This document shows, piece after piece, positions 1-59,675 of a stretch of 64,000 nucleotides of DNA. The first letter of the stretch is position 1; each line of letters opens with the position of its first letter. Position numbers and translations under genes: made by a program. The notes under the pieces are model-generated. The model worked only from the letters and a program-made list of their open reading frames with translations, ran no database searches and was not told the origin of the DNA. This DNA comes from Cordylochernes scorpioides (taxonomy: Eukaryota > Arthropoda > Arachnida > Pseudoscorpiones > Chernetidae): NCBI GenBank assembly GCA_030710605.1, contig CP092863.1, positions 114,704,680 to 114,768,679 on the forward strand, written 5' to 3'.

Positions 1-2
1 CC

Positions 3-1199
3 AATAACTTATCTATAATTTGTAAAAATCTATACCACGATATACTAAAAAAGGAAATTGATAATAATCATAAATACACTTTTGCTAGAACTACAGCCAC
101 AAAAATCAAAAAAGACATCAAAAATGTTGAAAATTCACTAAAAATTTATAATCACTACAAAAATCCAAACATACCAAAGTTCTATATAATTCCTAAACTA
201 CACAAAAAACCTATTTCTTTCAGAACAATCACATCTGGTATAAATTCAGTTATAAAAAACATTGATATACAATTAGCTTCAACACTACAATTTATTATAA
301 ATAAATTAACTAATAAATATAATTATAAATTTATCGACTCAAATAAAAAAATCATTAACTATTTAATGAACAATTGGACAAACATGGAAACAGTACACAC
401 ATTTGACTTTGAGGACCTATATTCTAAAATAAATTTAAGAGATCTAAATAATAAAATAACCAATTTATTTAACGAAATCATTAATGACAAAACTTTCCAC
501 ATTAAAATTATTCATAACAGATATAAAACAATTAAATTAGATCTTAAAACAGCAAAAACTCTTCTGGAAACATTTTTAAATTTTAACTATATAGAATTTA
601 AAAATAAAATATATATTCAATCAGAAGGAGTTCCCATGGGAACGTCTTCTAGTCCGTTATTAGCAAACTTAATATTATTCTGGTACGAAAGAGAATACTT
701 TCTACAAAATAATGTTAACTGGCAAATGTTCCGTTATGTAGATGACATTATAATATTTAATAATCCACAGTTCAAAAATTTAATACCTAAAATTTATCCT
801 AAATACTTGAAACTTAAAAACAATGAAAAAATTTATAGAAACAAAAAAGTTAACTTTTTAGACCTAAATATAGACCTTACAAATAATGCTATTAAAATTT
901 ATAATAAAAAAAGTAATTATAATTTCAATATTATAAAATACTGTAATATGAATTCTAATATTTCATTAAATTGCTGTAAAGGTATATATTTTGGTCAGTT
1001 TCTAAGATTTTATAGAATAAATAATATATTAGAAAATTTCATAGAAGATGTTAATAATTTAAACATGGAATTTATTAAAAACAAATTTAGTATCAGACAA
1101 GTAAAATATTTCAACAGTATATCAATTATAAAATACTTAAAAAAAAATAAATGGAAGTATCCATTTATTAAATCAACTTTCTATAATTTCTTTCAATAA
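3..1199 (+). CDS. Penelope-like reverse transcriptase, 5'-truncated by window edge
   Basis: The frame is open from base 3 to the TAA at 1197-1199, about 398 residues; the first in-frame ATG at 366 is internal, so the real start lies outside the window. Visible RT features in order: FYIIPKLHK with the following FRTITS (the fingers block that Penelope-like RTs share with TERT), motif A-like FDFEDLYSKI, motif B GVPMGTSSSPLLANL, the catalytic YVDDIIIF box, a VNFLDLNIDL motif, and YFGQFLRFYRI, which matches the yxQFLRxrRI signature typical of Penelope-like elements. No GIY-YIG endonuclease follows before the stop or in the next kilobase. The coding sequence is extremely AT-rich (many Asn, Lys, Ile), unlike the Ty3 elements nearby. 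It could be an endonuclease-lacking Penelope-like element or a 3'-truncated standard one. RT identity is secure; the subclass is inferred. Confidence 0.8.
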   Translation, partial: NNLSIICKNLYHDILKKEIDNNHKYTFARTTATKIKKDIKNVENSLKIYNHYKNPNIPKFYIIPKLHKKPISFRTITSGINSVIKNIDIQLASTLQFIINKLTNKYNYKFIDSNKKIINYLMNNWTNMETVHTFDFEDLYSKINLRDLNNKITNLFNEIINDKTFHIKIIHNRYKTIKLDLKTAKTLLETFLNFNYIEFKNKIYIQSEGVPMGTSSSPLLANLILFWYEREYFLQNNVNWQMFRYVDDIIIFNNPQFKNLIPKIYPKYLKLKNNEKIYRNKKVNFLDLNIDLTNNAIKIYNKKSNYNFNIIKYCNMNSNISLNCCKGIYFGQFLRFYRINNILENFIEDVNNLNMEFIKNKFSIRQVKYFNSISIIKYLKKNKWKYPFIKSTFYNFFQ

Positions 1200-2409
1200 T
1201 CAATACTACAAATTTATAATCTTCAACAATTAGTTAAACTTAAATTAAATAGCTGATTTGAAGATTTTTTCACAAGATTTTTAAAGTAATATTGTATATA
1301 ATTCATTTTGTTTAATCTCCAATTTCTGGGGAGGAAAATGGAAATTAAATAAAAGTGAATTTTCACAATTAATAGCTTTATTAAACTCTAATAATTTGCC
1401 TTTTTAAAGGAATATTGAAAGATGAATAAGTTTTGAATCAATTATTTTAATTTTTAACTGACTGTAAAGATTATAAAATTTGGATTTCTTCCCTTAACTA
1501 TCTTATCTTTATTCTTTGAATGTCTTGTTCTCCCACAATTCGGTCTAAATTTGTCCCCACCCCCCCACAACATGTGTTATCCAGAAATAGTTGTTTACAG
1601 TTGAAGGCGTTCGCGGACAAGGTAGGTACACATTATATCTGTTCATATAAATGTTTCACTGTAGTAACTTTATATTAACACATAAAATACGGTTGAAAGG
1701 AGGTCTAGACATAATAGAGAAGGGATGAAATGTTGAAAAGCTGAATTTCTATTTGAGAAGTCCCGGTTCAGCAGACCTCTTTTTTCAATAATTACTCCAA
1801 TTTAAGTTTTTTGTATATGTCTGGTCTACCATTAGGGTTTCAAAACATAATAACCAAACTTATAATAAAAGTTAATTCATATTATAGATATTTTACTAAA
1901 TACAACTTTTTATATTCATATTTTAAAATAAAAAAATTTAAAAAATCTTTAAAAAAAAAAAAAAAACGAATAAAATATAAAATTATAAAAATATATATAT
2001 ATATACTAACAATCTTATCTACCTTATTTACAAAACTTTCTGTTTTCTTTCTATTAGTTTGATTAAAAGTACATGGTTCTGTCTTTCTATCTTTTTTCTA
2101 ACTATTATATATATTATCTCTTCGATTATTCTATATATAGGATTAGAGTATGTCTGAATGACGTGTAAAAGCCGATGTAATAGACGTTACTTTGTTAATT
2201 TTTTATTGTTATTAATTATAATTATATAATTAACTAGAGGATGTTTTAGAAGTAAAGAATTTTTTTTTTCTCTATCTATACTAAATAATAACAATTAACA
2301 AATTTATAATTTGAATTTAAATAATCAAACTAATGAAGATAATTTTAATAGAATACTTAACTATAAAACTATACAACTATTTATTTTTATATATATATAT
2401 ATATATATA
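1200..2409. other. AT-rich non-coding stretch
   Basis: No gene is visible. The stretch holds A/T homopolymers, a short C run near 1560 and a TA microsatellite at about 2388-2409 that abuts the first LTR. The short open frame at 1811-2062 is low-complexity Lys/Ile/Tyr and is not credible. Part may be the 3' tail of the preceding Penelope-like element. Confidence 0.6.
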
Positions 2410-7760: not shown

Positions 7761-7769
7761 GATGTACAG

Positions 7770-7975
7770 CTTGCACTACGCTGATTAAGGCCAACAGTCC
7801 GAAACGCGTACGGAAAAGAGTATTTTTCCAATATTCTGAAATATTTTTTTAAACATCAACTATTAGTTCATATTTATTTCAACAGATGGCGCAAGCCATC
7901 AGCAACTTTTAGTTGCATAATCAGGTGATGACTTTTTTCATTAAAACCCCTATTTGCATAGTTTCACTAGATACC
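7770..7975 (+). repeat. Half of a hammerhead-bearing palindromic element, degenerate ribozyme
   Basis: The start reads CTGATTA followed by a weak stem II and CCGAAACGCGTACGG, the order of a type I hammerhead, but core position G8 is changed (CTGATTA for CTGANGA). It is followed by the arm shared with 13387-13684, containing AGATGGCGCAAGCCATCAGC. Only one arm remains. I expect no cleavage activity. Confidence 0.55.
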
Positions 7976-15418: not shown

Positions 15419-15740
15419 AGAGGCACATCTCCCTTTAAAATGGGTTAAAACAATGTGTATTGCTTATCACCCCAGTACCAAACGTAATGGAGGTGATAAA
15501 GAATGAGCCACAACACCAGTTTTGACAAACACAGACAACAGCCAACAACCTGTATACCATGGTTTCAGGCTATGGTCCTCATCAGTACAGGGACGGCTTC
15601 ATAACATCCTACGAAAGGAATCTGAATTTGATAAAACCGGTGTTTTGGCTCATTCTTTATAATCACTAGTAAAGTTTTTTACTAAGGTGATAAACATAAT
15701 GCTTTGTTTTGATGCACAATTAAAGGGAGAGGTTCTTCTT
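15419..15740. mobile_element. Palindromic element with full hammerhead core, third family
   Basis: Left arm elements (CATCTCCCTTTAA, TGCTTATCACC, AATGAGCCACAACACCAGTT) recur inverted on the right (AAAACCGGTGTTTTGGCTCA, GGTGATAAACATAATGC, TTAAAGGGAGAGG). The ribozyme at 15549-15591 sits between the arms. Partial relatives are at 39005-39195 and 40708-40860. It has no coding capacity. I found no clear target duplication at this copy. Confidence 0.65.
15549..15591 (-). ncRNA. Type I hammerhead ribozyme, full core, weak stem II
   Basis: Read on the minus strand: stem I CCUGUA, core CUGAUGA, stem II segment GGACCAUAGCCU, core GAA, stem III ACCAUGGU, cleavage-site nucleotide A, then UACAGG closing stem I with 6 perfect pairs. 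All conserved core positions are present. Stem II has one G-U and one A-C mismatch, so activity may be low. Stem III is a palindrome, which in known minimal hammerheads can pair between two copies to form an active dimer. An identical copy is at 56239-56281. Confidence 0.75.
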
Positions 15741-15756
15741 TTGGTATATGTATATA

Positions 15757-16337
15757 CGCTCATGGACAAAACTTAAAGTAGTTGTACCTTTCAGCATGTA
15801 TATCGGGATTGAGACAATAACTCTGAAAGATACACTCATGGACAAAACTTAAGGAAGTTGTACCTTTTAGCATATATATCGGGATTCAGATAATAACTCT
15901 GAAAGATACACTCATGGACAAAACTTAAGGAAGTTGTACCTTTTAGCATATATATCGGGATTGAGATAATAACTCTGAAAGATACACTCATAGACAAAAC
16001 TTAAGGAAGTTGTACCTTTTAGCATGTATATCTGGAATCAGACAATAACTCTGAAAGATACACTCATGGACAAAACTTAAAGAAGTTGTACCTTTTAGCA
16101 TGTATATCGGGATTGAGACAATAACTATGAAAGATACACTCATAGACAAAACTAAAGAAGTTGTACCTTTTAACATGTATATCGGAATTCAGACAATAAC
16201 TCTGAAATATATTAGTGACCTTTATTGAAGACACACGAGATAACCAAGTGTGAACAAAATTGCCTTCGTATCCTTAAAAAAAATTAGACGACTACCGAAA
16301 TCAAAGACTTTTCACTTCCTTAAGTTTTGTCTAGTGT
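15757..16337. mobile_element. Tc1-like TIR element filled with 76-bp tandem repeats
   Basis: Six units of 76 bp each start ACTCATGGACAAAACTTAAG, which is also the left terminus. A non-repeated tail ends with the inverse, ACTTCCTTAAGTTTTGTC. Other copies are at 29808-30931, 43569-43996 and 56446-57027. Open frames across the array are by-products of the repeat. Confidence 0.75.
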
Positions 16338-17271: not shown

Positions 17272-17677
17272 GCCCACAAAAGAATCATCCCTGCGAATTA
17301 TTCTACCGAATTTCGAATCAGTGTTTTGTGAAACGATTACAAGACTTTACATTATGGTTTTTTTTTTGTTGTGATCAAAATACAAATTGTCTTTCCATTC
17401 TCAAATTTGTCTTCCTTCATTTTTCTATCCTCAAAAAGTGTTAATAATGACACATTACAGTTTAAAAACAACACCAACATATATCACACTTTTATAAAAG
17501 ATTAATATACAACTCTTTCATTATATTGTGGCAAAGAAATAATTTATTACACCTATCCCCCGATTTACACGGTATTTGTTTTACACGTTTTCGCTTTTAC
17601 ACGGATTTCCAAATAAGTTTTTTTTATCGCACTATACTAAATGCTACTGTGATTGAACACATGCGCTGTGTACACAT

Positions 17678-17827
17678 TGTTATGATTGATCCGGCAACAC
17701 TGCCGACTCGACTTGTAAACACTCTTAGATATATAACCACGTCATAATAAATAGATGTTAATAAATAAATACTTAGTTCAGTTGCATTCTGCGTGATCAA
17801 ATAGACACAAGAACAACATAAACAACA
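17678..17827 (+). repeat. 5' LTR of E3
   Basis: 150 bp, starts TGTTATGATTG and ends AACAACA, identical to the 3' LTR. Confidence 0.96.
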
Positions 17828-17840
17828 TGGTGGCAGCGGA
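17828..17840 (+). other. tRNA primer-binding site of E3
   Basis: TGGTGGCAGCGGA follows the 5' LTR with no spacer and nearly equals the E2 site. Confidence 0.85.
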
Positions 17841-17899
17841 AAAGTGAGTACTTTTTCAAATAAATTATTATTGAAAAATATTAGTGAAAAAAAGAAAAC

Positions 17900-20857
17900 A
17901 TGGACTTTGTTAGGCCTAGCGAACTCGCCCTGCACGGAAATGTAGCGGAAAATTGGCGAAGGTTCAAACAGCGATTAATGCTTTATCTTGAAGCAACAGA
18001 AAAAGCCACAAAGCCTGATAAACTGAAAGTTGCCATTTTATTAAATTTTATTGGCGAAGAAGCCTTGGAAGTTTTCAACACATTTCATTTAAAAGAAGAT
18101 GAAGCAGAAAATTTCGATCTTGTAATAAACAAATTTGATGATTTTTGCGAGCCTAAAAAGAACGTCATTTTTGAAAGATTCAAATTTTTTTCAGCGACCC
18201 AGAAGGATGGTGAATCCATCGATAGTTTTATAACAGAACTAAAAGGATTATCCACATCATGTGAATTTGAATCACAAAAGGATAGTTTAATAAGGGATCG
18301 CATTGTGTATGGAATACAAGACAAGGCTTTGCAGGAACGCCTCTTAAGAGAGCCCAATTTAACTCTTCTAAAAGCCATTGAAATGTGCAAAACAGATGAA
18401 ATAAGCAAGCAACAGATCAAGATCATGCAGAACAACCAGAACATTTGTCAAATAAGAAAATATGAAAAGAAACACAGTCAAAAACAAAATCAAGAATCTG
18501 AAAAAGAATTCAAATGCCAAAGGTGTGGAAAGTCCCACAGAGCAAAAAATTGTCCTGCATGGGGTAAAAGATGCTCCAAATGCAAAAAGATGAATCATTT
18601 TGCAGCTTTCTGTAAAAGTTCAGCTATCAGAAGTCTGAATGATGAAACAGAAGAAACTGTATGGTCAATACATGAAGCAAAAGTAGTCCATACTTTGGAA
18701 TGGAAAAAATCCATCATAGTGAATGGAAAGGAAATATGTTTCAAGTTGGACTCTGGAGCAGAAGTAAATGTTTTGCCATACACATTCACCAGACAAATGA
18801 AAGGTTTGGAAATATTTCAGACTAACCGAAAGCTAACATCATATACAGGACATGAAATCAAGATAAAAGGAATTGCCACACTAAATTGCAAAACTAAAAA
18901 TAAGACGGAAAGTCTAGAATTTTTCATTGCTGATGGATACTATCAACCAATTTTAGGAATAGAAGCTATTGAAAAGCTTTCACTAATTAAGAAATGTGAT
19001 GCTGTCCAAACAGAGCAAAACAATTCAGCAAAAGAAATTTTGAACAGGCACAAAAATATATTTGAAGGCATAGGAAGACTGCCAATTGAACACAAGATTA
19101 GACTAAAAGAAAATGCAACTCCAGTTATTGCTCCAAGCAGAAAAATTCCTTTTTCCATTAGAGAAAAAGTTAAAGCAGAATTGGAACGGATGGAAAAACT
19201 TGACATTATTGAAAAAGTTGAAGAACCAAGCGAATGGACACACCCTATTGTAGTGGTACAAAAACCTTCTGGAGATGTCAGAATTTGCATGGACCCCAGG
19301 GAACTGAACAAATATGTTCAGAGAGAGCGCTATATTCTGCCAACAGCTGAAACAATATTTTCTGAACTGAAAGGTGCTACAGTTTTCTCTGTATTTGATG
19401 CATCATCAGCTTTCTGGCAAGTCCCATTAGACAAAGAAAGCACCAACCTGTGCACCATTGCGACTCCCTTTGGAAGATTCCGGTTCAAGCGACTTCCCTA
19501 TGGATTGAACAGTGCATCGGAGGTATTCCAGCGATGCATAAACAATATTCTTTCAGGTCTCCAGGGAACTGCTTGCTATATGGATGACATCTTGATTTAT
19601 GGAAGCACAATGGAAGAGCACAACCGAAACCTTGAAACAGTTCTTCGAAGGTTGGAAGAAAATAATGTCAAGCTCAATGCTAAGAAGCAGCAGATAGCTG
19701 TCAACAAAGTAAATTTCTTAGGCCATATAATCAGTCGAGATGGAATAGCCATTCAAGCTTCAAGAGCAGAGGCAATACAAAAGTTGAAAAGACCTGAGAA
19801 CAAGACTGAAGTCCAAAGATTCTTAGGTATGGTAACGTACCTTGGCAAATTCATTCCTAATCTGTCTGACAAGACTGCACCTCTAAGGAAATTGATAAGC
19901 AACAAGAGTGAATGGAAATTTGGAGGCGAAGAAAATGATTGTTTTGAAAAACTCAAGAATATGGTTTCGAATGCTCCAATATTGACATTTTTTGACCCAA
20001 CCAAGCCAATCACCATTTCATCTGATGCAAGCCAATATGGTATTGGTACAGTGCTCATGCAAGGGGGACAAGCAATTGAGTATGCGTCCTTCAGCCTGAA
20101 TGCAACTCAAAGAAAATACGCACAGATAGAGAAAGAACTTTTGGCTATAGTCTTTGGATGTGAACGCTTCCAGTACTATATTTGGGGAAATGATGTTATT
20201 GTGGAAACTGACCACAAACCTCTCCTGAGTATTGTTAAGAAACCTTTAGAAAAGCTTTCCCCAAGACTGCAAAGAATGGTCTTACGTCTCATGAGATTTC
20301 AAATATCTTTGAAGTTTACACCAGGGAAAAACATGTTTGTAGCTGACCATCTGTCTAGAGATCCATTAAAAGATGAGGTGGACACAAGCTATTTAGAAGG
20401 TCAAACTGAATCAGTGCACATGTTGCTGGTTACCACAGATGAAAAAATAAAGAGACTACAAAAGGAAACTCATGGGGACCACACCTTGATACAACTAATA
20501 GAGTATGCGAAGAATGGATGGCCGAAATATAAAACTATGGTCTGTGATGAAGCAAAACCCTACTGGCAATTTCAAGATGAAATTCATGTGAGTGATGGAA
20601 TTGTTTACAAAGGAAATTGCATCATGGTGCCATCGACTCTTCGAAAAGAAATCCTGCAGGTTGTTCATTCATCACACCAGGGCATAGCAGCTTCCAAAGA
20701 AAAAGCAAGATCAGCATTTTACTGGCCCGGCATGATAACACAAGTAGAAAATGAAGTGGAAAAGTGCAGAACATGTCAGGAATATTCAAGAAAGAATCCT
20801 GAGGAGTCAAGAATAGCTCATGAAATCCCTGAATTTCCATGGGAAAAATTGCTGTAG
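17900..20857 (+). CDS. E3 Gag-Pol polyprotein (Gag, protease, RT, RNase H, start of integrase)
   Basis: The ATG at 17900 starts a 985-residue single-frame Gag-Pol. In order: capsid-like Gag (residues 1-180), two zinc knuckles (CQRCGKSHRAKNC and CSKCKKMNHFAAFC, about 200-235), protease with LDSGAEVNVLP (about 280), RT with motif A FSVFDASSAF, LPYGLNSASEVFQ and catalytic YMDDILIY (about 450-600), RNase H with SSDASQYGIG, the ELLAIVF helix and TDHKPLL (about 700-810), and the integrase HHCC finger (HSSHQG...CRTC). Translation stops at TAG 20855-20857 just before the integrase core. The following frame carries that core, so an A run at about 20845-20849 marks a 1-nt shift. That could be a sequence error, decay or, less likely, -1 frameshifting. 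Confidence 0.95.
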   Translation: MDFVRPSELALHGNVAENWRRFKQRLMLYLEATEKATKPDKLKVAILLNFIGEEALEVFNTFHLKEDEAENFDLVINKFDDFCEPKKNVIFERFKFFSATQKDGESIDSFITELKGLSTSCEFESQKDSLIRDRIVYGIQDKALQERLLREPNLTLLKAIEMCKTDEISKQQIKIMQNNQNICQIRKYEKKHSQKQNQESEKEFKCQRCGKSHRAKNCPAWGKRCSKCKKMNHFAAFCKSSAIRSLNDETEETVWSIHEAKVVHTLEWKKSIIVNGKEICFKLDSGAEVNVLPYTFTRQMKGLEIFQTNRKLTSYTGHEIKIKGIATLNCKTKNKTESLEFFIADGYYQPILGIEAIEKLSLIKKCDAVQTEQNNSAKEILNRHKNIFEGIGRLPIEHKIRLKENATPVIAPSRKIPFSIREKVKAELERMEKLDIIEKVEEPSEWTHPIVVVQKPSGDVRICMDPRELNKYVQRERYILPTAETIFSELKGATVFSVFDASSAFWQVPLDKESTNLCTIATPFGRFRFKRLPYGLNSASEVFQRCINNILSGLQGTACYMDDILIYGSTMEEHNRNLETVLRRLEENNVKLNAKKQQIAVNKVNFLGHIISRDGIAIQASRAEAIQKLKRPENKTEVQRFLGMVTYLGKFIPNLSDKTAPLRKLISNKSEWKFGGEENDCFEKLKNMVSNAPILTFFDPTKPITISSDASQYGIGTVLMQGGQAIEYASFSLNATQRKYAQIEKELLAIVFGCERFQYYIWGNDVIVETDHKPLLSIVKKPLEKLSPRLQRMVLRLMRFQISLKFTPGKNMFVADHLSRDPLKDEVDTSYLEGQTESVHMLLVTTDEKIKRLQKETHGDHTLIQLIEYAKNGWPKYKTMVCDEAKPYWQFQDEIHVSDGIVYKGNCIMVPSTLRKEILQVVHSSHQGIAASKEKARSAFYWPGMITQVENEVEKCRTCQEYSRKNPEESRIAHEIPEFPWEKLL

Positions 20858-21780
20858 ATTTCATGGAGGTGAGTGGAACCAGTTCCATCTTGGTTGTCGA
20901 TTACCACTCAAAGTTTGTTGAAATCCGGAAATTATCAAGCAAAAGAGAAACCGAAACCATCCTGCAGTTGAAAACCATTTTCAGGACTCATGGAATTCCA
21001 AGAACTCTAGTTTCGGATAATGGACCCCCTTTTAACTCTACTGGATTCAAAAATTTTGCTCAGAAATATGAATTCAAACACCAAACCTCCAGTCCCAAAT
21101 ATCCAAGATCTAATGGACAAGTTGAGAGGACAATTCAAACCATCAAAGGACTGATAATTAAAGCTGTGAAGTCAGGAAGAGATCCCAATCTGGCTTTGAT
21201 GGAGTTCAACAACACACCTAAGTATGACTTGCCATCTCCGACCCAAATGCTTATGGGAAGATCTGTGAGAACTCTTTCGACATACACCCGACAACAGTTG
21301 AAACCACTGTTTGACACAACAAAGAATTACCAAAAATTGAGAGACCATCAACAAAAGTATGCAGGAAGTCCAAAGAGAATTTTGAGACCTTTGGAAGTAG
21401 GAGACAACATCATGTTGCAGGAAAGGCATAGAAAATGGGTTCCGGCAACAGTGACCGCAAAGCATGAAACTCCACGCTCATATATGGTGAAAACACCAAG
21501 TGGATCTGAATACCGCAGGAACAAGTCTCACCTTAGACCGAGAAAGTTCAGTGTAGAAGATTCTGCCCCAACAATTCAAAGTCCAAGCATTCCTGGATCT
21601 CAAGCAGGAACAGCCATGGATGAGAACATACAAGATCATGGAAGACCCACTTCCGAAAACAGAAGAGCATTTGATCCAAGGGAGGACGTTGCCAAGAAAG
21701 GTGAAGAATCATCTACTTCTCCTAGTGTGCGAACCCGCAGTGGTAGAACAGTGAGAAAACCTTTGCGTTATAGAGACTAG
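20839..21780 (+). CDS. E3 integrase core and C-terminal domain, separate frame
   Basis: This frame lies -1 relative to the upstream one and overlaps it. It holds the DDE core: Asp in IAVDFMEV, Asp in VSDNGPPF and Glu in NGQVERTIQ. The C-terminal region (VGDNIMLQERHRKWVPATV and YRRNKSHLRPR) is a GPY/F-like DNA-binding tail, followed by a low-complexity segment ending in SGRTVRKPLRYRD. The ATG at 20839 is unlikely to be a true start; the protein is normally the C-terminal part of Pol. All three catalytic residues are intact. Confidence 0.92.
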   Translation: MGKIAVDFMEVSGTSSILVVDYHSKFVEIRKLSSKRETETILQLKTIFRTHGIPRTLVSDNGPPFNSTGFKNFAQKYEFKHQTSSPKYPRSNGQVERTIQTIKGLIIKAVKSGRDPNLALMEFNNTPKYDLPSPTQMLMGRSVRTLSTYTRQQLKPLFDTTKNYQKLRDHQQKYAGSPKRILRPLEVGDNIMLQERHRKWVPATVTAKHETPRSYMVKTPSGSEYRRNKSHLRPRKFSVEDSAPTIQSPSIPGSQAGTAMDENIQDHGRPTSENRRAFDPREDVAKKGEESSTSPSVRTRSGRTVRKPLRYRD

Positions 21781-21820
21781 GAGAACTGCAATCCTTTTTT
21801 ATTTTTGTTCAAAGGAAACA

Positions 21821-21970
21821 TGTTATGATTGATCCGGCAACACTGCCGACTCGACTTGTAAACACTCTTAGATATATAACCACGTCATAATAAATAGATG
21901 TTAATAAATAAATACTTAGTTCAGTTGCATTCTGCGTGATCAAATAGACACAAGAACAACATAAACAACA
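21821..21970 (+). repeat. 3' LTR of E3
   Basis: 150 bp, identical to the 5' LTR. AAAGGAAACA just upstream is the plus-strand primer tract. Confidence 0.96.
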
Positions 21971-22119
21971 CACATCTCACGAGGAATCCCGAGCTTATGT
22001 GCTGACTACATATTTTAACCTGTCAATGCATTTTATTTTTATTTTTGTGTACACCTATCCCCCGATTTACACGTTTTTCTCAGGAACGTATCTACCGTGT
22101 AAATCGGGGGATAGATGTA

Positions 22120-22985
22120 TTTAATTTAATTATTCAATGAAAATATTCAACAGATTATAAAAATATATATTACTCTGTATTTGTGAAATCATCTTTAAAA
22201 CATTTCTTTGCTTGTTTGCTCAAGATTCCCTAGCTGTAGATAGTTTGGTTAATAATAGTCGACTGGTCGTGGTGACATCATCAATAAATACTTTCACATC
22301 TTAAGATATACAAATACATGAATTCTACGCTACAATATAAAAAGCAAAAAAAAAAAAAAAAGAATTTCCAAAAGTAAACACATTTCTAAAAAAAAAGAGA
22401 AAGATAATCACTTTATATTTATAAATCACAGTATTAACTCCCCCCGCTATAAACATATAAAAAAAGTTTTATATTAAAAAAAAAGTTTTTAACTTTTATT
22501 ATACCTATATTCAAACATACAAGGATAATTAAAATACATTTTTATATAAAAAAAAATAAATGAATCGCAAGTGTGTGACCAGAAAAATATTAAATTTTAC
22601 GATGGAAACCTAACACCCTGTTTAAAATACAAACGAGGCTTAATTTGTCCAAGATGGAGCCTGCCGTTTTCAACCCAGCAGACGATAGTTTAATAATGTC
22701 GACGTAGCCCTAAATTGACAGGGAAAATTTTTCAACATCTTGCCTTCATTAAACTTACCCCCACGTTTGGATAGTTTTTTATTTTTAAAAAATGGTTATA
22801 ATATTTGTTAATTATATATTATTAAACATAAAAATGGTCTCTCTCATTTATAATGACTTATAGAAGCTAAATATAAACGAATTACAAATTCTAAAAGGTT
22901 TTCGTTTAATTAAAATCTGCACATATACTTTTAACGTATACGTTGAGGAGAACGCTAAATGATTATAAATATACATTAAAAACAA
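22120..22985. other. AT-rich non-coding stretch
   Basis: No gene is visible. Poly-A runs near 22350 and TA-rich sequence dominate. A less AT-rich patch at 22600-22770 shows no domain or RNA that I recognise. Confidence 0.55.
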
Positions 22986-22989
22986 ATTA

Positions 22990-23270
22990 GGTATATCCTG
23001 ACCAGGAGCACATGTGCTTTTCAGAAAGCAGAGCGCCATCTGGTGGAACAGAAATCAACTAAACATTGATTAAGCCTGTTCCCTGATATTTGGCCAACCC
23101 AATTTCTTGATAAATCATGAAAAGCCATCCACGAACGCGTTTCGCGCTGTTGGCGCTCGTCAGCGTGGAGTAGGCTGTACCACTGCGACCAAAAGGATTT
23201 TTGGTCCCAGAGGCTTCTTGAGAAACCAAGAAATGGGTATTCGAGGCCAAACTTGCATAAATACGCTTAA
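22990..23270 (-). mobile_element. Non-autonomous element with intact hammerhead, first family
   Basis: On the minus strand the ribozyme at 23128-23169 is followed by TTATCAAGAAATTGGGTTGG, TTGGCCAAATATCAGGG, an AATCAATG..TAGTTGATTT hairpin and a CCAGATGGCGCTCTGC arm. This is the same order as the right half of 13387-13684. Upstream is a sequence with GGTTTCTCAAGAAGCC and ACCAAAAATCC. No protein is encoded. The nearly identical copy is at about 59380-59645. Confidence 0.65.
23128..23169 (-). ncRNA. Minimal type I hammerhead ribozyme, complete core
   Basis: Read on the minus strand: stem I UCCACG, core CUGACGA, stem II GCGC-CAACA-GCGC, core GAA, stem III ACGCGU, cleavage-site U, and CGUGGA closing stem I with 6 perfect pairs. 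Every invariant core position of the hammerhead is present and all pairings are canonical. The self-complementary stem III is typical of the short hammerheads described in Penelope-like elements and retrozymes, where two copies pair as an active dimer. Expected cleavage is after the U in GUU. The identical copy is at 59519-59560. Confidence 0.9.
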
Positions 23271-23284
23271 CACATGAAAAAATA

Positions 23285-23548
23285 CACCTATCCCCCGATT
23301 TACACGGTACTTGTTTTACACGTTTTCGCTTTTACACGGTTTTCCAAATAAGTTTTTTGTTTTTATCGCACTATACTAAAATGCGATATTCTACTCTATA
23401 CTACCTATGTTGAAAAGAATATTGGGAGGCTCTGATTCATGAGGGGGCGAACAACTAATCAGATTTGACAGTTTAATATACACCTATCCCTCGATTTACA
23501 CGTTTTTCTCAGGAACGTATCTACCGTGTAAATCGGGGGATATAGGTG
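23285..23548. mobile_element. TA-flanked MITE, second member
   Basis: Inverted ends beginning CACCTATCCCCCGATTTACA and ending with the inverse (GGGGGATATAGGTG), TA on both sides, 264 bp. It is the same family as the element interrupted by E3. The copy in the second block is 59676-59941. Confidence 0.85.
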
Positions 23549-29807: not shown

Positions 29808-30931
29808 GGACTCATGGACAAAACTTAAGGAAGTTGTACCTTTTAACATGTATATCGGGATTGAGACAATAACTCTGAAAGATACACTCATGGACAAAAC
29901 TTAAGGAAGTTGTACCTTTTAACATGTATATCGGGATTGAGACAATACTCTAAAAGATACACTAATGGACAAAACTTAAGGAAGTTGTACCTTTTAGCAT
30001 GTATATCGGGATTGAGACAATAACTCTGAAAGATACACTCATGGACAAAACTTAAGGAAGTTGTACCTTTTATCATGTATATCGGGATTCAGACAATAAC
30101 TCTGAAAGATACACTCATGGACAAAACTTAAGGAAGTTGTACCTTTTATCATGTATATCGGTATTCAGACAATAACTCTGAAAGATACACTAATGGACAA
30201 AACTTAAGGAAGTTGTACCTTTTATCATGTATATCGGGATTGAGACAATAACTCTGAAAGATACACTCATGGACAAAACTTAAGGAAGTTGTACCTTTTA
30301 GCATGTATATCGGGATTGAGACAATAACTCTGAAAGATACACTCATGGACAAAACTTAAGGAAGTTGTACCTTTTATCATGTGTATCGGTATTCAGACAA
30401 TAACTCTGAAAGATACAATCATGGACAAAACTTAAGGAAGTTGTACCTTTTATCATGTATATCGGTATTCAGACAATAACTCTGAAAGATACACTCATGG
30501 ACAAAACTTAAGGAAGTTGTACCTTTTAGCATGTATATCGGGATTGAGACGATAACTCTGAAAGATACACTCATGGACAAAACTTAAGGAAGTTGTACCT
30601 TTTAGCATGTATATCGGGATTGAGACAATAACTCTGAAAGATACACTCATGGACAAAACTTAAGGAAGGTGTACCTTTTATCATGTATATCGGTATTCAG
30701 ACAATGACTCTGAAAGATACACTCATGGACAAAACTTAAGGGAGTTGTACCTTTTATCATGTATATCGGTATTCAGACAATAACTCTGAAAGATATTATA
30801 GTGACCTTTATTGAAGACACACGAGATAACCAAGTGTGAACAGCCTCAGTCTCCTTAAAAAAAAAAAAAAAAAAAACAGACGACCGGCGACATCAAATAC
30901 TTTCCACTTCCTTAAGTTTTGTCCATGAGTG
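29808..30931. mobile_element. Tc1-like TIR element with 13 units of 76 bp
   Basis: Thirteen consecutive units of about 76 bp, each starting ACTCATGGACAAAACTTAAG, are followed by a single-copy tail with AAGACACACGAGATAACC and an inverted terminus ACTTCCTTAAGTTTTGTCCA. Units differ by a few substitutions (TAGC/TATC, GATTGAG/ATTCAG). Confidence 0.8.
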
Positions 30932-35592: not shown

Positions 35593-36171
35593 TGGGGGTC
35601 GGTGGAAGGATGGTCTATACCGCTTGTTTTCAACCGCTACCACCCGGGTTCGATTCCCGCATTGGGCACTTTTTTCTTTTTAAAAAAATGCTCCAATGAC
35701 CCCTAGATCCTTGCAAAAGTCCAACCCCACCTGCGAGTGCAAGTAATCAAACGGGGCTTTGGCACATTTATAAGTGCAAAGTCGAACTGCTTTTCACATG
35801 TGTAGACATGTGGTGTACTTACAGTAAAAGCAGTCGCCAACTTTTACCCAGCATGATTATCATTGAAAATTTTGCCGGGAGGATATTGATCTAAAGAGAC
35901 AAAGGTCGCCTCTCCCGTCAAAATAGACGTCAAAACTAGACGCCATCCATTGACCGTCGCTGCAAACTAGCGGCCTCGGGTCGGTAACAAAGCCACAACA
36001 CCAGCTTTGGAAAACTGAAAAGCGTCCACCTAGAGACCATGGTTTCGGGTTAATGGCCCTTGTCATTCTAGGGCGGACTAGATGGCATCTAGTTTTGACG
36101 TCTATTTTGACGGGAGAGGCGACCTTTGTCTCTTTAGATGATTATCATTGCCTGTACCACGTGTACTAGGG
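35593..36171 (+). repeat. tRNA-derived SINE, split by a palindromic element
   Basis: Head GTGGGGGTCGGTGGAAGG, B box GGTTCGATTCCCGC, body with ACATGTGTAGACATGTGG, and tail CCTGTACCACGTGTACTAGG. The tail is separated from the body by the insertion at 35866-36137, which duplicates 13 bp of the SINE. Confidence 0.8.
35866..36137. mobile_element. Palindromic element with hammerhead relic and 13-bp target duplication
   Basis: Arms of about 59 bp (left 35890-35948 with GTCGCCTCTCCCGTC and ATAGACGTCAAAACTAG; right 36080-36137 inverted) surround a minus-strand hammerhead relic. Stem I GTCC-CCTAGA pairs with TCTAGG-GGAC, stem II is GGG-CCATTAA-CCC, then GAA, and stem III is the palindrome ACCATGGT. 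The core reads ATGACAA instead of CTGANGA. ATGATTATCATTG flanks both ends (35853-35865 and 36138-36150). Confidence 0.75.
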
Positions 36172-37241: not shown

Positions 37242-37384
37242 CAATTTTAACGGTGTTTAGAATTATTTTGTGTGTTAATGTGGGGTCAAAAAAAAAATAA
37301 TTTTTTTTTTTTACTAAATATTCAAAATAAAAATGTATATGAAAAAAACAATAGAAAAAAATAAAAGATAAGTGGGTCAGGTGT

Positions 37385-37530
37385 TGATATTAAAAATAAA
37401 GAAGGCATCTCCTGACCACGAGCACATGTGCTTTTTAGATGGCAGAGCGCCATCTAGTGGAGCCAAAATAAACTAAACGTTTATTTAACTTTCTCCGTGA
37501 TATTTGGCCAACCCAATTTCTTGATAAAAA
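37385..37530 (-). repeat. Arm of first-family hammerhead element, no ribozyme
   Basis: It matches 22990-23115 (GAGCACATGTGCTTTT, GCGCCATCTAGTGGA, TTGGCCAACCCAATTTCTTG), but the region where the hammerhead should follow is replaced by other sequence. Confidence 0.6.
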
Positions 37531-38390: not shown

Positions 38391-38984
38391 CAGTAGAACA
38401 ACCTCCCTGTAAAGGACAACACCTAATTGTAGAGCTAAAGTGTCTCCTTTAGGGAGAGATGTCCTCTTACCGGAGAGTTGTTAAATAGTAAAAATGGTGC
38501 CCTTTGGTTTGTGTAACGCCCCCGCGACCTTTGAGCGAATTATGGATAATCTTCTACGAGGATTCAAATGGACCATCTGTCTCTGCTACTTAGATGACAT
38601 CATAGTATTTTCCAAAACTATGGACGAATATCTACAACGTCTGGAAATGGTGTTAAGTTGCTTTTCAAAAGCGGGTCTCAAACTTAATTCGGAGAAATGT
38701 AGTTTTGGTGCTAGTCAAATAAAAGTACTGGGACATTTAATTGATGGAGATGGTATTTATCCTGACCCGGATAAAGTAGAATCTGTGATTAATTTTTCAA
38801 GACCAGAGAATGTATCAGAAGTCAGAAGCTTTTTGGGTCTCTGCTCCTACTACCGCCGATTCATTAAGAGCTTTGCTAACATAGCAGGACCGCTGAATGA
38901 ACTACTAAGGAATGGGGAAAGATTCTTATGGACTGATTGTCGGGTGTCCTCTAGCGCGGGTGTCCTCTCATGGAGGTTCTATTG
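38391..38984. mobile_element. Pogo-like TIR element carrying a Ty3 RT fragment
   Basis: TA-flanked ends: left CAGTAGAACAACCTCCCTG and right, inverted, CAATAGAACCTCCATGAG. The same termini make the array at 41556-42268. A reverse transcriptase fragment lies between them. Confidence 0.65.
38494..38940 (+). pseudogene. Ty3-type reverse transcriptase fragment
   Basis: About 150 residues: VPFGLCNAPATFERIMD, catalytic YLDDIIVFS, LGHLIDGDGI and VRSFLGLCSYYRRFI, i.e. the palm and thumb of a Ty3-type RT. No gag, protease, RNase H or integrase, and no LTR. It merges into the TIR of the surrounding element at both ends. The frame is open but it cannot be a working enzyme because motif A is absent. Confidence 0.85.
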
Positions 38985-43568: not shown

Positions 43569-43996
43569 CACTCATGTACCAAAAACTTAAGGAAGTGAAA
43601 AGTCTTTGATATTGCAGTTCGTCTTTTTTTGAAGGAGACAGAGGTTGTTCACACTTTGTTATCTGGTATATCTTCAATAAAGGTCACTGTAATATCTTTC
43701 AGAGTTATTGTCTCAATCCCGATATACATGCTAAAAGGTACAACTTCCTTAAGTTTTGTCCATGAGTGTATCTTTCAGAGTTATTGTCTGAATCCCGATA
43801 TACATGCTAAAAGGTACAACTTCCTTAAGTTTTGTCCATGAGTGTATCTTTCAGAGTTATTGTCTCAATCCCGATATACATGCTAAAAGGTACAACTTCC
43901 TAAAGTTTTGTTCATGAGTGTATCTTTCAGAGTTATTGTCTCAATCCCGATATACATGCTAAAAGGTACACCTTCCTTAAGTTTTGTCCATGAGTG
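43569..43996. mobile_element. 76-bp-repeat TIR element, opposite orientation
   Basis: TA-flanked: left CACTCATGTACC, right GTTTTGTCCATGAGTG. Four units of the 76-bp repeat lie at the right end. Confidence 0.8.
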
Positions 43997-44119
43997 TATT
44001 CTAAAGATTATCTGAACAAAAATCAATTTTAGATCACATTAGATAAGAAATAATATTTTGAATGTATAAATTGATACTCAAAATTTACTATAGAAAAAAA
44101 GGTATCTTTCCCAACAAGA

Positions 44120-44345
44120 ATAACGGAAAAACGAAGTGCCATCTATTGACCGTCTCTGAAACTTAACAAACTCGGATTGTTGACAAAGCCACAACACCAA
44201 CTTTGGAAAACTCAGAACACCCACCTGGAGGATGATGGTTTCGGCCTTCGTCAGTCTAGGATGACTGGAATTCGTAAAACCTTTTGCATATATCCAAAGT
44301 GGCTGACCATTCTACTGCCGAAATATAGATGTTCAGGAATGATAT
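44120..44345 (-). repeat. Hammerhead element relic related to 35866-36137
   Basis: The minus strand has CCTAGA, an intact CTGACGA core and GAAACC, but stem II is reduced to AGGCC with no loop and stem III/I no longer pair properly. Confidence 0.5.
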
Positions 44346-44800
44346 CAATCTTGAAAAGAGGGCTACCTCTCCCATCAAAATAGACGTTAAAACTAAGCTC
44401 AATCTATTGACCGTATCTACAATCTAGCGGACTCGGGTCGGTGACACAACACCAGTTTTAGTAAATTCGGATAACATAGTTTTTGCGTTATTTTGATGGG
44501 GGAGTGAGATATTTTATTTTTTAATTTGCATACCCTCACAGCAAAATGTCATCCTTTTAAATAGAGAGTCGGGAAGTGCAGGAAGGAAATCAAGCATAAA
44601 AAGAGGGCTACCTCTCCTGTCAAAATAGACGTTAAAACTAAGCTCAATCTATTGACCGTCTCTGCAATCTAGCGGACTCGGGTCGGTGACACAACACCAG
44701 TTTTAGTAAATTCGGATAACATAGTTTTTGCGTTATTTTGATGGGGGAGTGAGATATTTTATTTTTTAATTTGCATACCCTCACAGCAAAATGTCACATT
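44346..44800. repeat. ~215-bp tandem duplication of a palindromic-family arm
   Basis: GAGGGCTACCTCTCC through CACAGCAAAATGTCA occurs at about 44358-44550 and again at about 44603-44794 with a few differences. It shares AAAATAGACGTTAAAACTA with 35866-36137. Confidence 0.7.
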
Positions 44801-45026
44801 TGTAAATAGAGAGTCGGTAGGCGAGTGATACAAACCGTTGATTCCCGACAGCTACGACCCGGGATCGAATCTCGCATTGGACACTTTTTTTCTGAATTAA
44901 AAAAATCACTCCAATGGCCTAGATTCTTGCAAAAGTTCAAACCCACCAATGAGTACAAGTAACCAAAAGGAGCTATGACACTCTTGTAAAGTACAATAGT
45001 TGAACTGCTGTGTAGACATGTGGTGT

Positions 45027-51310: not shown

Positions 51311-51720
51311 GCCTTGATAATCATAGTGGGTAGTAATTGGCAACTGTTTTTACTGTAATTGCGTCACATGTCCACACATGTAGAAAGTAATTCGACTTTT
51401 TGCACCTAAAAAATGTGTCAGAGTCCCCGTTTGGTTACTTGCAGTCACTTTTGCAAGAATCAGAGGCTATTGAAGCATTTAGACCATTTGATCTTTGATG
51501 TACAGCTTGCACTACGCTGATTAAGGCCAACAGTCCGAAACGCGTACGGAAAAGAGTATTTTTCCAATATTCTGAAATATTTTTTTAAACATCAACTATT
51601 AGTTCATATTTATTTCAACAGATGGCGCAAGCCATCAGCAACTTTTAGTTGCATAATCAGGTGATGACTTTTTTCATTAAAACCCCTATTTGCATAGTTT
51701 CACTAGATACCATTGCTAAG
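51311..51720. repeat. Second copies of SINE fragment and degenerate hammerhead half-element
   Basis: These match 7567-7975, including the CTGATTA...CCGAAACGCGTACGG relic. Confidence 0.6.
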
Positions 51721-54904: not shown

Positions 54905-56238
54905 TAATAGTATTTTAAAACGTTTTGTTTAAAATTTCGAAAATTAATAACACAATATTAAAATTAGTTTTTTGTTGTTTTATATAATTAAGGAATATGC
55001 AAATTTACATTGTTTCTCTTGCTTGTTTTTATTATAATCGTTTTGTGTTTGTGTGGTGTTTTTTTTTTTTATATAAATTGGATGTAATGATGATAAAGGA
55101 ATAACCTTTTTCCATTTTATATTCAAAATTCAGTGAAAAAAATATATATATAATCAATTAAATACAAAATTCACAAAGGTGACATTATATATTAGTAATA
55201 TATAAAAACAATATCGTTTTGAAAATAGAGCAATCCATAAATAAATCTTTAATTAAAAAGGCATATATTGAATCAAAATATAATTTATTTTACCAATATT
55301 ATATAACATATAATACCTTGAAATAGGTTGGCGTTCAGCCAACTGAAATATTAGTAAAATAAATTATATTTTGATCAAATATATACCTTTTAATTAAAAA
55401 TTATATATAAAATAGTAATTAAGTAACAAACACAAAAGATTATTTTAGAATATTTTTCATTTTCGACCAAAAGATATAAGTATGTAATAAATATAAATTC
55501 AAAGCAGACGATCGTTGTGGAAAACTAAAAAATGTAAAAAGCCCAGTTTGATATCTGATTTCCCAAAACGTTTATTGGTTAATTTAATCACGTGATCATC
55601 TATCTTTCTTCCCCCCCCTCACTATTTATTCGCTTGTCAATACTTTCCAAACGCATCCGACAACACTGTATATATATAGAGAGATAAACTTAATATTTAT
55701 ATTCTTCCAATACATTAGACGTAGCGCCATCTATGAACAATTTTTTAAACTAAACGAACCCTAAATATATTATTTTCGTCCTATTTTTTTCTTCCAATTT
55801 CTCATAAGGAGAGATTTAATTAATTTCCTTTTTCTCTTTCTCATATTTCTTATTGAAAATATTTTTCAATGAAAATTAAATTAAATAGAAGAAAAAAATC
55901 GAATTGGAATTAATTTTCCTTAGTTACATATTCTTCTAAAAAAAATCGAATTTCATGTATATAATGGCCGATATATATACAATGTAAATATGTTAATATG
56001 TCTTGATAAAGATTGGTGTTCAGACAGCCGAAATATTGGCAAATAAATATTTTTATTCAATCCAATATATGCCTCTTTTATTATATAAATATAAATATAT
56101 ATCATAGAGAGGCACATCTCCCTTTAAAATGGGTTTAAAACAATGTGTATTGCTTATCACCCCAGTACCAAACGTAATGGAGGTGATAAAGAATGAGCCA
56201 CAACACCAGTTTTGACAAACACAGACAACAGCCAACAA

Positions 56239-56281
56239 CCTGTATACCATGGTTTCAGGCTATGGTCCTCATCAGTACAGG
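56239..56281 (-). ncRNA. Hammerhead ribozyme, second copy of 15549-15591
   Basis: Identical sequence: stem I CCUGUA/UACAGG, CUGAUGA core, weak stem II, GAA, palindromic ACCAUGGU. Confidence 0.75.
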
Positions 56282-56445
56282 GACGGCTTCATAACATCCT
56301 ACGAAAGGAATCTGAATTTGATAAAACCGGTGTTTTGGCTCATTCTTTATAATCACTAGTAAAGTTTTTTACTAAGGTGATAAACATAATGCTTTGTTTT
56401 GATGCACAATTAAAGGGAGAGGTTCTTCTTTTGGTATATGTATAT

Positions 56446-57027
56446 ACGCTCATGGACAAAACTTAAAGTAGTTGTACCTTTCAGCATGTATATCGGGATT
56501 CAGACAATAACTCTGAAAGATACACTCATGGACAAAACTTAAGGAAGTTGTACCTTTTAGCATATATATCGGGATTCAGATAATAACTCTGAAAGATACA
56601 CTCATGGACAAAACTTAAGGAAGTTGTACCTTTTAGCATATATATCGGGATTGAGATAATAACTCTGAAAGATACACTCATAGACAAAACTTAAGGAAGT
56701 TGTACCTTTTAGCATGTATATCTGGAATCAGACAATAACTCTGAAAGATACACTCATGGACAAAACTTAAAGAAGTTGTACCTTTTAGCATGTATATCGG
56801 GATTGAGACAATAACTATGAAAGATACACTCATAGACAAAACTAAAGAAGTTGTACCTTTTAACATGTATATCGGAATTCAGACAATAACTCTGAAATAT
56901 ATTAGTGACCTTTATTGAAGACACACGAGATAACCAAGTGTGAACAAAATTGCCTTCGTATCCTTAAAAAAAATTAGACGACTACCGAAATCAAAGACTT
57001 TTCACTTCCTTAAGTTTTGTCTAGTGT
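56446..57027. mobile_element. 76-bp-repeat TIR element, second copy
   Basis: Same six units and tail as 15757-16337. Confidence 0.75.
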
Positions 57028-58506: not shown

Positions 58507-59518
58507 TATTTAATTTAATTATTCAATGAAAATATTCAACAGATTATAAAAATATATATTACTCTGTATTTGTGAAATCATCTTTAAAACATTTCTTTGC
58601 TTGTTTGCTCAAGATTCCCTAGCTGTAGATAGTTTGGTTAATAATAGTCGACTGGTCGTGGTGACATCATCAATAAATACTTTCACATCTTAAGATATAC
58701 AAATACATGAATTCTACGCTACAATATAAAAAGCAAAAAAAAAAAAAAAAGAATTTCCAAAAGTAAACACATTTCTAAAAAAAAGAGAAAGATAATCACT
58801 TTATATTTATAAATCACAGTATTAACTCCCCCCGCTATAAACATATAAAAAAAGTTTTATATTAAAAAAAAAGTTTTTAACTTTTATTATACCTATATTC
58901 AAACATACAAGGATAATTAAAATACATTTTTATATAAAAAAAAAATAAATGAATCGCAAGTGTGTGACCAGAAAAATATTAAATTTTACGATGGAAACCT
59001 AACACCCTGTTTAAAATACAAACGAGGCTTAATTTGTCCAAGATGGAGCCTGCCGTTTTCAACCCAGCAGACGATAGTTTAATAATGTCGACGTAGCCCT
59101 AAATTGACAGGGAAAATTTTTCAACATCTTGCCTTCATTAAACTTACCCCCCACGTTTGGATAGTTTTTATTTTTAAAAAATGGTTATAATATTTGTTAA
59201 TTATATATTATTAAACATAAAAATGGTCTCTCTCATTTATAATGACTTATAGAAGCTAAATATAAACGAATTACAAATTCTAAAAGGTTTTCGTTTAATT
59301 AAAATCTGCACATATACTTTTAAACGTATACGTTGAGGAGAACGCTAAATGATTATAAATATACATTAAAAACAAATTAGGTATATCCTGACCAGGAGGC
59401 ACATGTGCTTTTCAGAAAGCAGAGCGCCATCTGGTGGAACAGAAATCAACTAAACATTGATTAAGCCTGTTCCCTGATATTTGGCCAACCCAATTTCTTG
59501 ATAAATCATGAAAAGCCA

Positions 59519-59560
59519 TCCACGAACGCGTTTCGCGCTGTTGGCGCTCGTCAGCGTGGA
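59519..59560 (-). ncRNA. Hammerhead ribozyme, second copy of 23128-23169
   Basis: Identical 42 nt with complete core and stems. Confidence 0.9.
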
Positions 59561-59675
59561 GTAGGCTGTACCACTGCGACCAAAAGGATTTTTGGTCCCA
59601 GAGGCTTCTTGAGAAACCAAGAAATGGGTATTCGAGGCCAAACTTGCATAAATACGCTTAACACATGAAAAAATA

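What the first reader, a model, noticed from the sequence alone, without database searches (positions are those of the whole stretch)
23128..23169. Complete minimal hammerhead ribozyme hidden on the minus strand
All invariant core bases (CUGACGA, GAA, A-U closing pair, non-G cleavage base) are present, with 6 perfect pairs in stem I, 4 in stem II and a palindromic ACGCGU stem III. The chance of all this occurring together at random is very low. The known family is the short type I hammerhead of Penelope-like elements and retrozymes. That it self-cleaves, probably as a dimer, is inference.
Basis: partly seen in the sequence, partly recalled or inferred. Interest (0 to 1): 0.88.

Follow-up and report, generated by a model that had tools for sequence, protein, structure and literature searches.

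The report
Hammerhead ribozyme of an animal retrozyme
A small self-cutting RNA motif here is real and belongs to a very abundant parasitic DNA repeat, whose copies look as if RNA cut at the predicted spot was copied into the genome by the same kind of machinery as a Penelope-like jumping gene found next door.

Summary
The minus strand at 23128-23169 carries a complete type I hammerhead; stem I extends to 23123-23176, so it is not minimal. Rfam's best score (28.7 bits) is below its 52-bit cut-off, but family evidence is strong: the core pattern occurs 14,629 times in the 2.62-Gb host genome (reversed control 0), and 37 distinct copies show compensatory changes.

It lies in a dispersed ~350-bp repeat that matches metazoan non-LTR retrozymes: tandem units, 41% GC, self-paired RNA, one-pair stem III with a palindromic loop. 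Two results bear on open questions. (1) Head-to-head inserts start at two alternative internal RNA positions, one per arm (25 of 27 classed pairs, one set aside), mostly in (TA)n: the two-start 'tail' signature published for Penelope-like elements. A Naiad-like PLE, one copy of which enters the window, does the same (6 of 6 resolved pairs). (2) 5' ends pile up at the predicted cleavage site, 201 against 36-56 at control positions. Most likely: a retrozyme moved in trans by PLE machinery, at least sometimes from ribozyme-cut RNA. Self-cleavage, circles and the PLE partner are inferred.

The parts
22975..23283 (-). The retrozyme copy holding the hammerhead; about 0.9 of the ~350-nt unit. Blast maps 22990-23282 to unit positions 195 -> 144 (position 1 = first nt after the cleavage site); outer limits approximate
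23128..23169 (-). Hammerhead core as reported: inner stem I, CUGACGA, stem II, GAA, stem III
23123..23176 (-). Full hammerhead with outer stem I AGCC/GGCU (23176-23173 with 23126-23123) across a UAC/U internal loop
23164..23169 (-). Stem I inner 5' strand UCCACG (pairs with 23128-23133)
23157..23163 (-). Catalytic core CUGACGA
23144..23156 (-). Stem II GCGC/GCGC with loop CAACA
23141..23143 (-). Core GAA
23135..23140 (-). Stem III ACGCGU: one A-U pair closing a palindromic CGCG loop
   Evidence: A-U kept in 37 of 37 rows
23133..23134 (-). Predicted cleavage between U17 (23134) and C1.1 (23133)
59366..59674 (-). Second copy of the element (limits approximate), hammerhead 59519-59560, carried by the segmental duplication (offset about 36,391)
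37356..37528 (-). 5'-truncated retrozyme copy without hammerhead (unit 20 -> 192, i.e. ends in the tail)
7764..7825 (+). Old, degraded hammerhead of the same family (40.5 bits with model R1); duplicate at 51500-51561
1..2400 (+). 3' part of a Naiad-like Penelope-like element (RT ORF 366-1199, 3' region to ~2393, then (TA)n); candidate mobiliser

Best explanation
The motif is the self-cleaving type I hammerhead of a non-autonomous metazoan non-LTR retrozyme with a ~345-352-nt unit. Proposed cycle: transcripts holding the unit cut themselves at GUU^C, probably as dimers because stem III is one base pair with a palindromic loop (inferred). Monomers circularise (inferred). PLE-type machinery, most likely the abundant Naiad-like PLE of this genome, cuts (TA)-rich DNA and starts reverse transcription inside the retrozyme RNA at one of two U-rich sites ~48 nt apart (inferred from insert ends). 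On circles it goes round more than once and leaves tandem units. When both target strands are primed, one arm starts at site A and the other at site B, giving a head-to-head insert with a 'tail' on one side. When the template is linear cut RNA, synthesis ends at the ribozyme's 5' end. The insert anatomy is observed; the enzymology is inferred.
For: Core complete; descriptor 0 hits in 100 simulated windows. 14,629 pattern copies, control 0. 37 distinct copies: 94.9% of cells paired, 19 double-change cells against 4.4 shuffled and 0-4 slid; U-A to A-U in 7 copies, C-G to G-C or U-A in 7. Unit 345-352 nt, 41% GC, fold z -7.7. 12 of 40 chromosome-ordered loci have an arm over 1.1 units. Tandem units within an arm are closer to each other than the between-locus median in 17 of 20 listed arms, and head-to-head arms of one locus in 22 of 24 listed pairs; six young loci reach 98.9-100% against a between-locus median of 90-92%. 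Head-to-head pairs start A/B in 14 of 16 classed pairs of the ordered set (L043, A/A, set aside; 4 more had an unclassed end) and 11 of 11 classed pairs of the scored set (2 more unclassed). 3' flanks hold (TA)3 in 40 of 58 arms of the ordered set against 453 of 6,475 background positions. The Naiad-like PLE has two 3' ends A'/B'; 6 of 6 fully resolved divergent pairs are A'+B' and 13 of 16 resolved ends run straight into (TA)n. The two-start rule and tail are published as unique to PLEs (PMC11167929). 5' ends of site-A single-arm copies of the ordered set lie at 343..3 in 7 of 21, against 0 of 54 arms of the 27 classed pairs of both sets. Genome-wide, TATA beside the cleavage nt 201, against 36 (-9), 53 (+8), 56 (+14), reverse-strand counts.
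Against: No Rfam hammerhead model passes its cut-off. The predicted minimum-energy fold of the isolated 62-nt motif pairs part of the core with the stem III stretch, so it is not the active fold, and the full-unit folds do not show the complete hammerhead either. The hammerhead region as a whole is no better conserved than the rest of the unit (0.912 against 0.904, p 0.41), though 12 catalytic positions average 0.973. In one search the number of pairs with double changes (4) is not above shuffles (3.1). The Naiad-like PLE forms tandem arrays and shows no hammerhead in the one unit examined, so tandem arrays alone do not prove ribozyme-made circles. No sequence is shared between retrozyme and PLE beyond weak AT-rich matches. 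Many cleavage-site 5' ends carry one or two extra T, which fits untemplated addition but also microhomology. Tandem units of three old arms (L021, L032, L069) and two head-to-head pairs (L020, L038) are not closer than between loci. No RNA data.
Confidence: 0.85

Rival explanations
1. Same retrozyme, but mobilised by another PLE (for example a Penelope/Poseidon or Neptune type that carries its own minimal hammerhead) and not by the Naiad-like one.
For: PLEs share the two-start tail rule (PMC11167929). Only one PLE family was looked for, with one RT query. No sequence shared with the Naiad-like PLE beyond weak AT-rich matches.
Against: The Naiad-like PLE is abundant (19,749 first-look candidates) and young (107 of the 140 scored copies at the top score, all 140 shown at 100% identity), and uses the same kind of target and the A/B rule.
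Confidence: 0.3
2. The hammerhead is a fossil: the element spreads through uncut multimeric read-through RNA and the ribozyme no longer matters.
For: A published PLE does not need its hammerhead in vitro and no RNA ends were found at its site (PMC11167929). The hammerhead is not better conserved than the rest. The Naiad-like PLE makes tandem arrays with no hammerhead found in the unit examined. The motif's predicted minimum-energy fold is not the active one.
Against: 5' ends pile up at the cleavage nucleotide; compensatory changes in stems I and II.
Confidence: 0.15
3. 5' ends at the site are caused by RT pausing at the folded ribozyme or by TT microhomology, not by a cut template.
For: Many of the listed junctions read TATATTCGTGG, and TT also precedes the site in the uncut unit.
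Against: RT coming from the 3' side would meet stem I before position 1, not stop exactly beyond it (reasoning); a TT-matched control 14 nt away gives 56 against 201.
Confidence: 0.2
4. Chance motif in a repeat.
For: Below Rfam cut-off.
Against: Descriptor 0 hits in 100 simulated windows; double changes that keep pairing.
Confidence: 0.02

Closest known systems
Metazoan non-LTR retrozymes (Cervera & de la Pena 2020, PMC7229834; parts 1-4 of 6 read)
   Same: Type I hammerhead, tandem 150-450-bp repeats, GC below 50%, strongly self-paired RNA, thousands of copies, PLEs in the same genome; single-pair helix III with palindromic tetraloop as in axolotl HHR_Amex1
   Different: Here insert ends carry the PLE two-start tail rule and a 5'-end peak at the cleavage site; neither is described in the parts read. 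circRNA not tested here.
Newt satellite / axolotl HHR_Amex1 dimeric hammerheads (PMC7229834)
   Same: Helix III of one pair with palindromic tetraloop, which acts best as a dimer
   Different: Host differs, sequences not compared; dimer activity not tested here
Penelope-like elements with minimal hammerheads (Poseidon of Anolis, PMC11167929; parts 1-2 of 4 read)
   Same: Two adjacent internal RT starts giving a 'tail', AT-rich target, tandem arrangement
   Different: Non-coding ~350-nt unit, longer hammerhead, tail ~48 nt (30-40 bp in the paper), no ORF
Naiad PLEs (N-terminal GIY-YIG, CxC, C-terminal RT; Craig et al. 2021, recalled only, paper not held)
   Same: The neighbouring PLE has this domain order by eye; recalled insertion bias for microsatellites and lack of hammerheads fit
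   Different: Pfam gives RVT_1 for the RT part but no GIY-YIG hit, so the endonuclease assignment is by motif only
Rfam Hammerhead_HH9 RF02275 (amniote intronic hammerhead, recalled)
   Same: Best-scoring hammerhead model, same type I layout
   Different: 28.7 bits, below the 52-bit threshold; not a member by Rfam's rule

Membership tests
Hammerhead ribozyme, type I | CUGANGA, GAA, A15.1-U16.1, H17, three stems, open end at stem I | tested here: met
Hammerhead ribozyme, type I | Score above an Rfam gathering threshold | tested here: not met
   (HH9 28.7 of 52 bits)
Hammerhead ribozyme, type I | Compensatory changes that keep the stems | tested here: met
   (37 of 50 distinct rows used, see Tried and rejected)
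Hammerhead ribozyme, type I | Mg-dependent self-cleavage | not testable with these tools
   no bench; indirect 5'-end peak
Metazoan non-LTR retrozyme | Tandem ~150-450-bp units with a type I hammerhead each | tested here: met
   (12 of 40 ordered and 6 of 20 scored loci have an arm over 1.1 units; the window copy is single)
Metazoan non-LTR retrozyme | Low GC and strongly self-paired RNA | tested here: met
   41% GC; z -7.7, circular z -6.3
Metazoan non-LTR retrozyme | No LTR, PBS or PPT | tested here: inconclusive
   no LTR seen in the copies mapped; PBS and PPT not searched
Metazoan non-LTR retrozyme | Expressed linear and circular RNA | not testable with these tools
   no transcriptome
Metazoan non-LTR retrozyme | PLEs in the same genome | tested here: met
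Penelope-like element (autonomous) | RT and GIY-YIG ORF in the element | tested here: not met
   the ~350-nt unit is too short for such an ORF
PLE-type insertion (mechanism) | Two alternative internal RT starts (tail) and AT-rich target, as seen in insert ends | tested here: met
   Naiad-like PLE

The most novel reading that the evidence does not exclude
Retrozyme and PLE are two halves of one system: a PLE in which no ribozyme was found mobilises in trans a non-coding circular RNA that carries the ribozyme. The insertion fossils then record both PLE two-site internal priming on that RNA and hammerhead cleavage in living cells, giving a genomic assay for ribozyme activity in vivo.
Probability: 0.55. 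Interest if true: 0.75.

Novelty: new member of a known kind. Interest (0 to 1): 0.6.

Why it matters
What moves animal retrozymes, and whether their hammerhead matters in retrotransposition, are open. The literature read names PLEs only as likely candidates (PMC7229834, parts 1-4 of 6; PMC7761336, passages), and one in vitro PLE study found its hammerhead dispensable and no RNA ends at its site (PMC11167929, parts 1-2 of 4). Insert ends that carry the PLE two-start signature, together with a 5'-end peak at the cleavage nucleotide, turn both into questions that can be tested in any genome with retrozymes and with one purified protein.

Tried and rejected
Rfam gathering scan: no hammerhead. Idea that the hammerhead sits in a PLE pLTR: rejected, the one PLE unit examined shows no hammerhead and shares no sequence beyond weak AT-rich matches. 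Idea that the 37356 copy is tied to the RT fragment at 38494: rejected, that RT reads as gypsy-like by eye and lies on the other strand. Purifying selection on the whole hammerhead: not found. Taxon: hemocyanin domain search empty, and the tool says it is uninformative; the organism stays unknown. Viral contigs: 0 matches to the core. Prokaryote genome contigs: 2 matches to the 20-mer, about 0.5 expected by chance (my estimate); of the two I read only L093, around the match, which shows no resemblance to the element. The 245-bp tandem at 44334-44817 was checked for a hammerhead: none with E up to 1. L043 was set aside from the pair counts because both its flanks equal one flank of L042, as if an inverted duplication.

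Full report
What is there. On the minus strand the reported 42 nt hold every invariant hammerhead base, 6 pairs in inner stem I, 4 in stem II and A-CGCG-U as stem III. Stem I goes on through a UAC/U internal loop with AGCC/GGCU, so this is a full type I motif. Rfam's gathering scan does not report it; the permissive scan gives HH9 at 28.7 bits, E 3.6e-5 in 501 bases, threshold 52. A descriptor finds two hits in the window, this one and its duplicate at 59519-59560, and none in 100 simulated windows. As a single 62-nt strand the predicted minimum-energy fold pairs part of the core with the stem III stretch (-20.3 kcal/mol), so it is not the active fold; two strands together fold to -47.7, lower than twice the single strand, with the palindrome paired between them. 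That fits action as a dimer but is only a prediction.

It is one of thousands. The window lies in a 2.62-Gb genome in 24 contigs of an unnamed organism, with eukaryotic-type retroelements. The core pattern occurs 7,232 + 7,397 times, and a 20-mer from the non-ribozyme part 14,519 + 14,204 times; reversed controls are 0. Counts may be raised by local duplications: many listed places come in pairs 20-150 kb apart. I mapped 60 loci to a circular unit taken from L023: 20 picked from the 46 matches of the best-scored list, and the first 40 clusters in chromosomal order from the 100 listed places of the 20-mer, the latter not chosen for an intact ribozyme.

The ribozyme as a family. 78 hammerhead regions, 50 distinct, were found in 44 sources. 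On 37 trimmed distinct rows 94.9% of pair cells are standard. There are 19 cells with changes on both sides, against 4.4 in shuffles and 0-4 when the strands are slid; the number of pairs with such changes (4) is not above shuffles (3.1). An older-looking subfamily has A-U for U-A at the end of inner stem I and G-C for C-G in stem II. The A-U pair of stem III is kept in 37 of 37. The ribozyme region as a whole is not better conserved than the rest of the unit in the ordered set (0.912 against 0.904, p 0.41), while 12 catalytic positions average 0.973. Most genomic copies are expected to drift, so this neither helps nor hurts much.

Unit and arrays. The units read out are 345-352 nt; the L023 unit has 41% GC against 34% for the window, and an L059 unit folds to -119.5 kcal/mol, z -7.7. 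12 of 40 ordered and 6 of 20 scored loci have an arm longer than 1.1 units. Tandem units within an arm are closer to each other than the between-locus median in 17 of 20 listed arms; the exceptions L021, L032 and L069 are old. In head-to-head arms this holds for 22 of 24 listed pairs; the exceptions are L020 and L038. In six young loci (L023 arms 2/3, L027 arms 0/1, L042, L044, L056, L059) units and opposite arms agree at 98.9-100%, against between-locus medians of about 90-92%. L044 has three and L059 four identical full units. A second insertion in L027 (96.0%) and an older pair in L023 (96.0%) are less alike. Single comparisons with other loci also reach 100% for L027, L042, L043, L044 and L051. 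So both arms and all units of an insert mostly come from one template sequence.

Ends. Sense 3' ends fall at unit ~150-160 (site A, after a U-rich run) or ~190-205 (site B, after a second U-rich run), often followed by (TA)n: 40 of 58 arms of the ordered set hold (TA)3 or (AT)3 in the 25 nt around the end, against 453 of 6,475 background positions. Single-arm copies of the ordered set end 21 at A, 3 at B, 4 elsewhere; of the scored set 12, 3 and 2. Head-to-head pairs have one A and one B: ordered set 14 A/B, 2 B/B, 1 A/A (L043, set aside), 4 with an unclassed end; scored set 11 A/B, 2 with an unclassed end. This is the 'tail' arrangement that Frangieh et al. 2024 (PMC11167929, parts 1-2 of 4 read) trace to two adjacent internal RT start sites and call unique to PLEs. 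A 2013 rotifer paper (PMC3846280, passages) describes the tail on one of the inverted pLTRs.

The PLE next door. The window begins inside a head-to-head PLE insertion. Its ORF reads, by eye, as an N-terminal GIY-YIG-like stretch, a CNC motif and a C-terminal RT; Pfam supports only the RT. The clade name Naiad is recalled. Of 19,749 candidates 140 were scored; 107 of them reach the top score and all are shown at 100% identity, many with an 826-aa open frame, in tandem arrays of ~4,232 bp and head-to-head sets. Of 20 outer ends fetched, 1 gave no hit and 3 (L072, L081, L085) were unresolved. The other 16 end at unit ~2057 (A', 7) or ~2188 (B', 9), L077 and L078 within about a dozen bases of these; 13 of the 16 run straight into (TA)n, L073, L074 and L077 do not. 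Six divergent sets, paired by position, have both outer ends resolved, and all 6 are A'+B'. So retrozyme and PLE share target type and start rule. The PLE makes tandems with no hammerhead found in the unit examined, so tandems as such are a PLE trait.

Trace of cleavage. Among the 21 site-A single copies of the ordered set, 7 have a 5' end within 343..3, i.e. at the predicted cut (0.4 expected if uniform; p 5e-8), against 0 of 54 arms of the 27 classed head-to-head pairs of both sets. Uniformity is not strict, since loci were chosen by a 20-mer at ~24-43. A genome-wide count with fixed patterns gave, on the reverse strand, 201 places with TATA within 4 nt of the first nucleotide after the cut, against 36 (9 nt upstream), 53 (+8) and 56 (+14, also preceded by TT). 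Forward counts (328, 55, 91, 68) count (TA)n runs more than once. Part of the -9 matches are mutated full ribozymes, not truncations. The abundance of each 16-mer alone was not counted. Many of the listed junctions at the cut carry one or two extra T, which may be untemplated addition or microhomology. I read this as run-off on ribozyme-cut linear RNA in part of the insertions; it is indirect.

What is known and what is new. Metazoan non-LTR retrozymes are a described kind (PMC7229834, parts 1-4 of 6 read). That paper and a review (PMC7761336, passages) propose PLEs as mobilisers by association. In the listings of my searches I saw no title or abstract start that reports the PLE tail rule or cleavage-site 5' ends in retrozyme inserts; most subscription papers are not in the library.

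Noticed in passing
window 36017-36083 (-) and 15536-15602 (-) = 56226-56292 (-): Degraded hammerhead-like motifs of what looks like a second family, with an 8-nt palindromic stem III ACCATGGT and, at 15536, a CUGAUGA core and 6-bp stem I (24.8 bits E 1.3e-4, and 12.1 bits E 0.68, with model R1). The genome search for it did not complete.
   Followed up: partly
window 35900-36170: The second family's motif lies inside a long inverted repeat (GGTCGCCTCTCCCGTCAAAATAGACGTC and its complement).
   Followed up: partly
window 44334-44817: 245-bp tandem dimer that shares stretches with the element at 35.9-36.2 kb; no hammerhead found.
   Followed up: partly
window ~2.4-24 kb and ~49-60 kb: Large near-identical duplication; a gypsy-like element with identical 150-bp ends (17678-21970) is present only in the first copy.
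   Followed up: partly
G000, e.g. C12:40869567-40891558 and C3:99907905-99929225: The Naiad-like PLE forms arrays of up to six ~4.2-kb tandem copies with identical RT protein, although no ribozyme was found in the one unit examined; how its tandem template arises is unexplained.
   Followed up: partly
window 15754-16211, 29810-30795, 43693-43999, 56444-56901: One 76-bp tandem repeat family recurs at four places, once in opposite orientation.
   Followed up: no
window 23283-23545, 17548-17641, 22050-22113: Repeat with TTTACACGG units beside the retrozyme copy, possibly another non-autonomous element.
   Followed up: no
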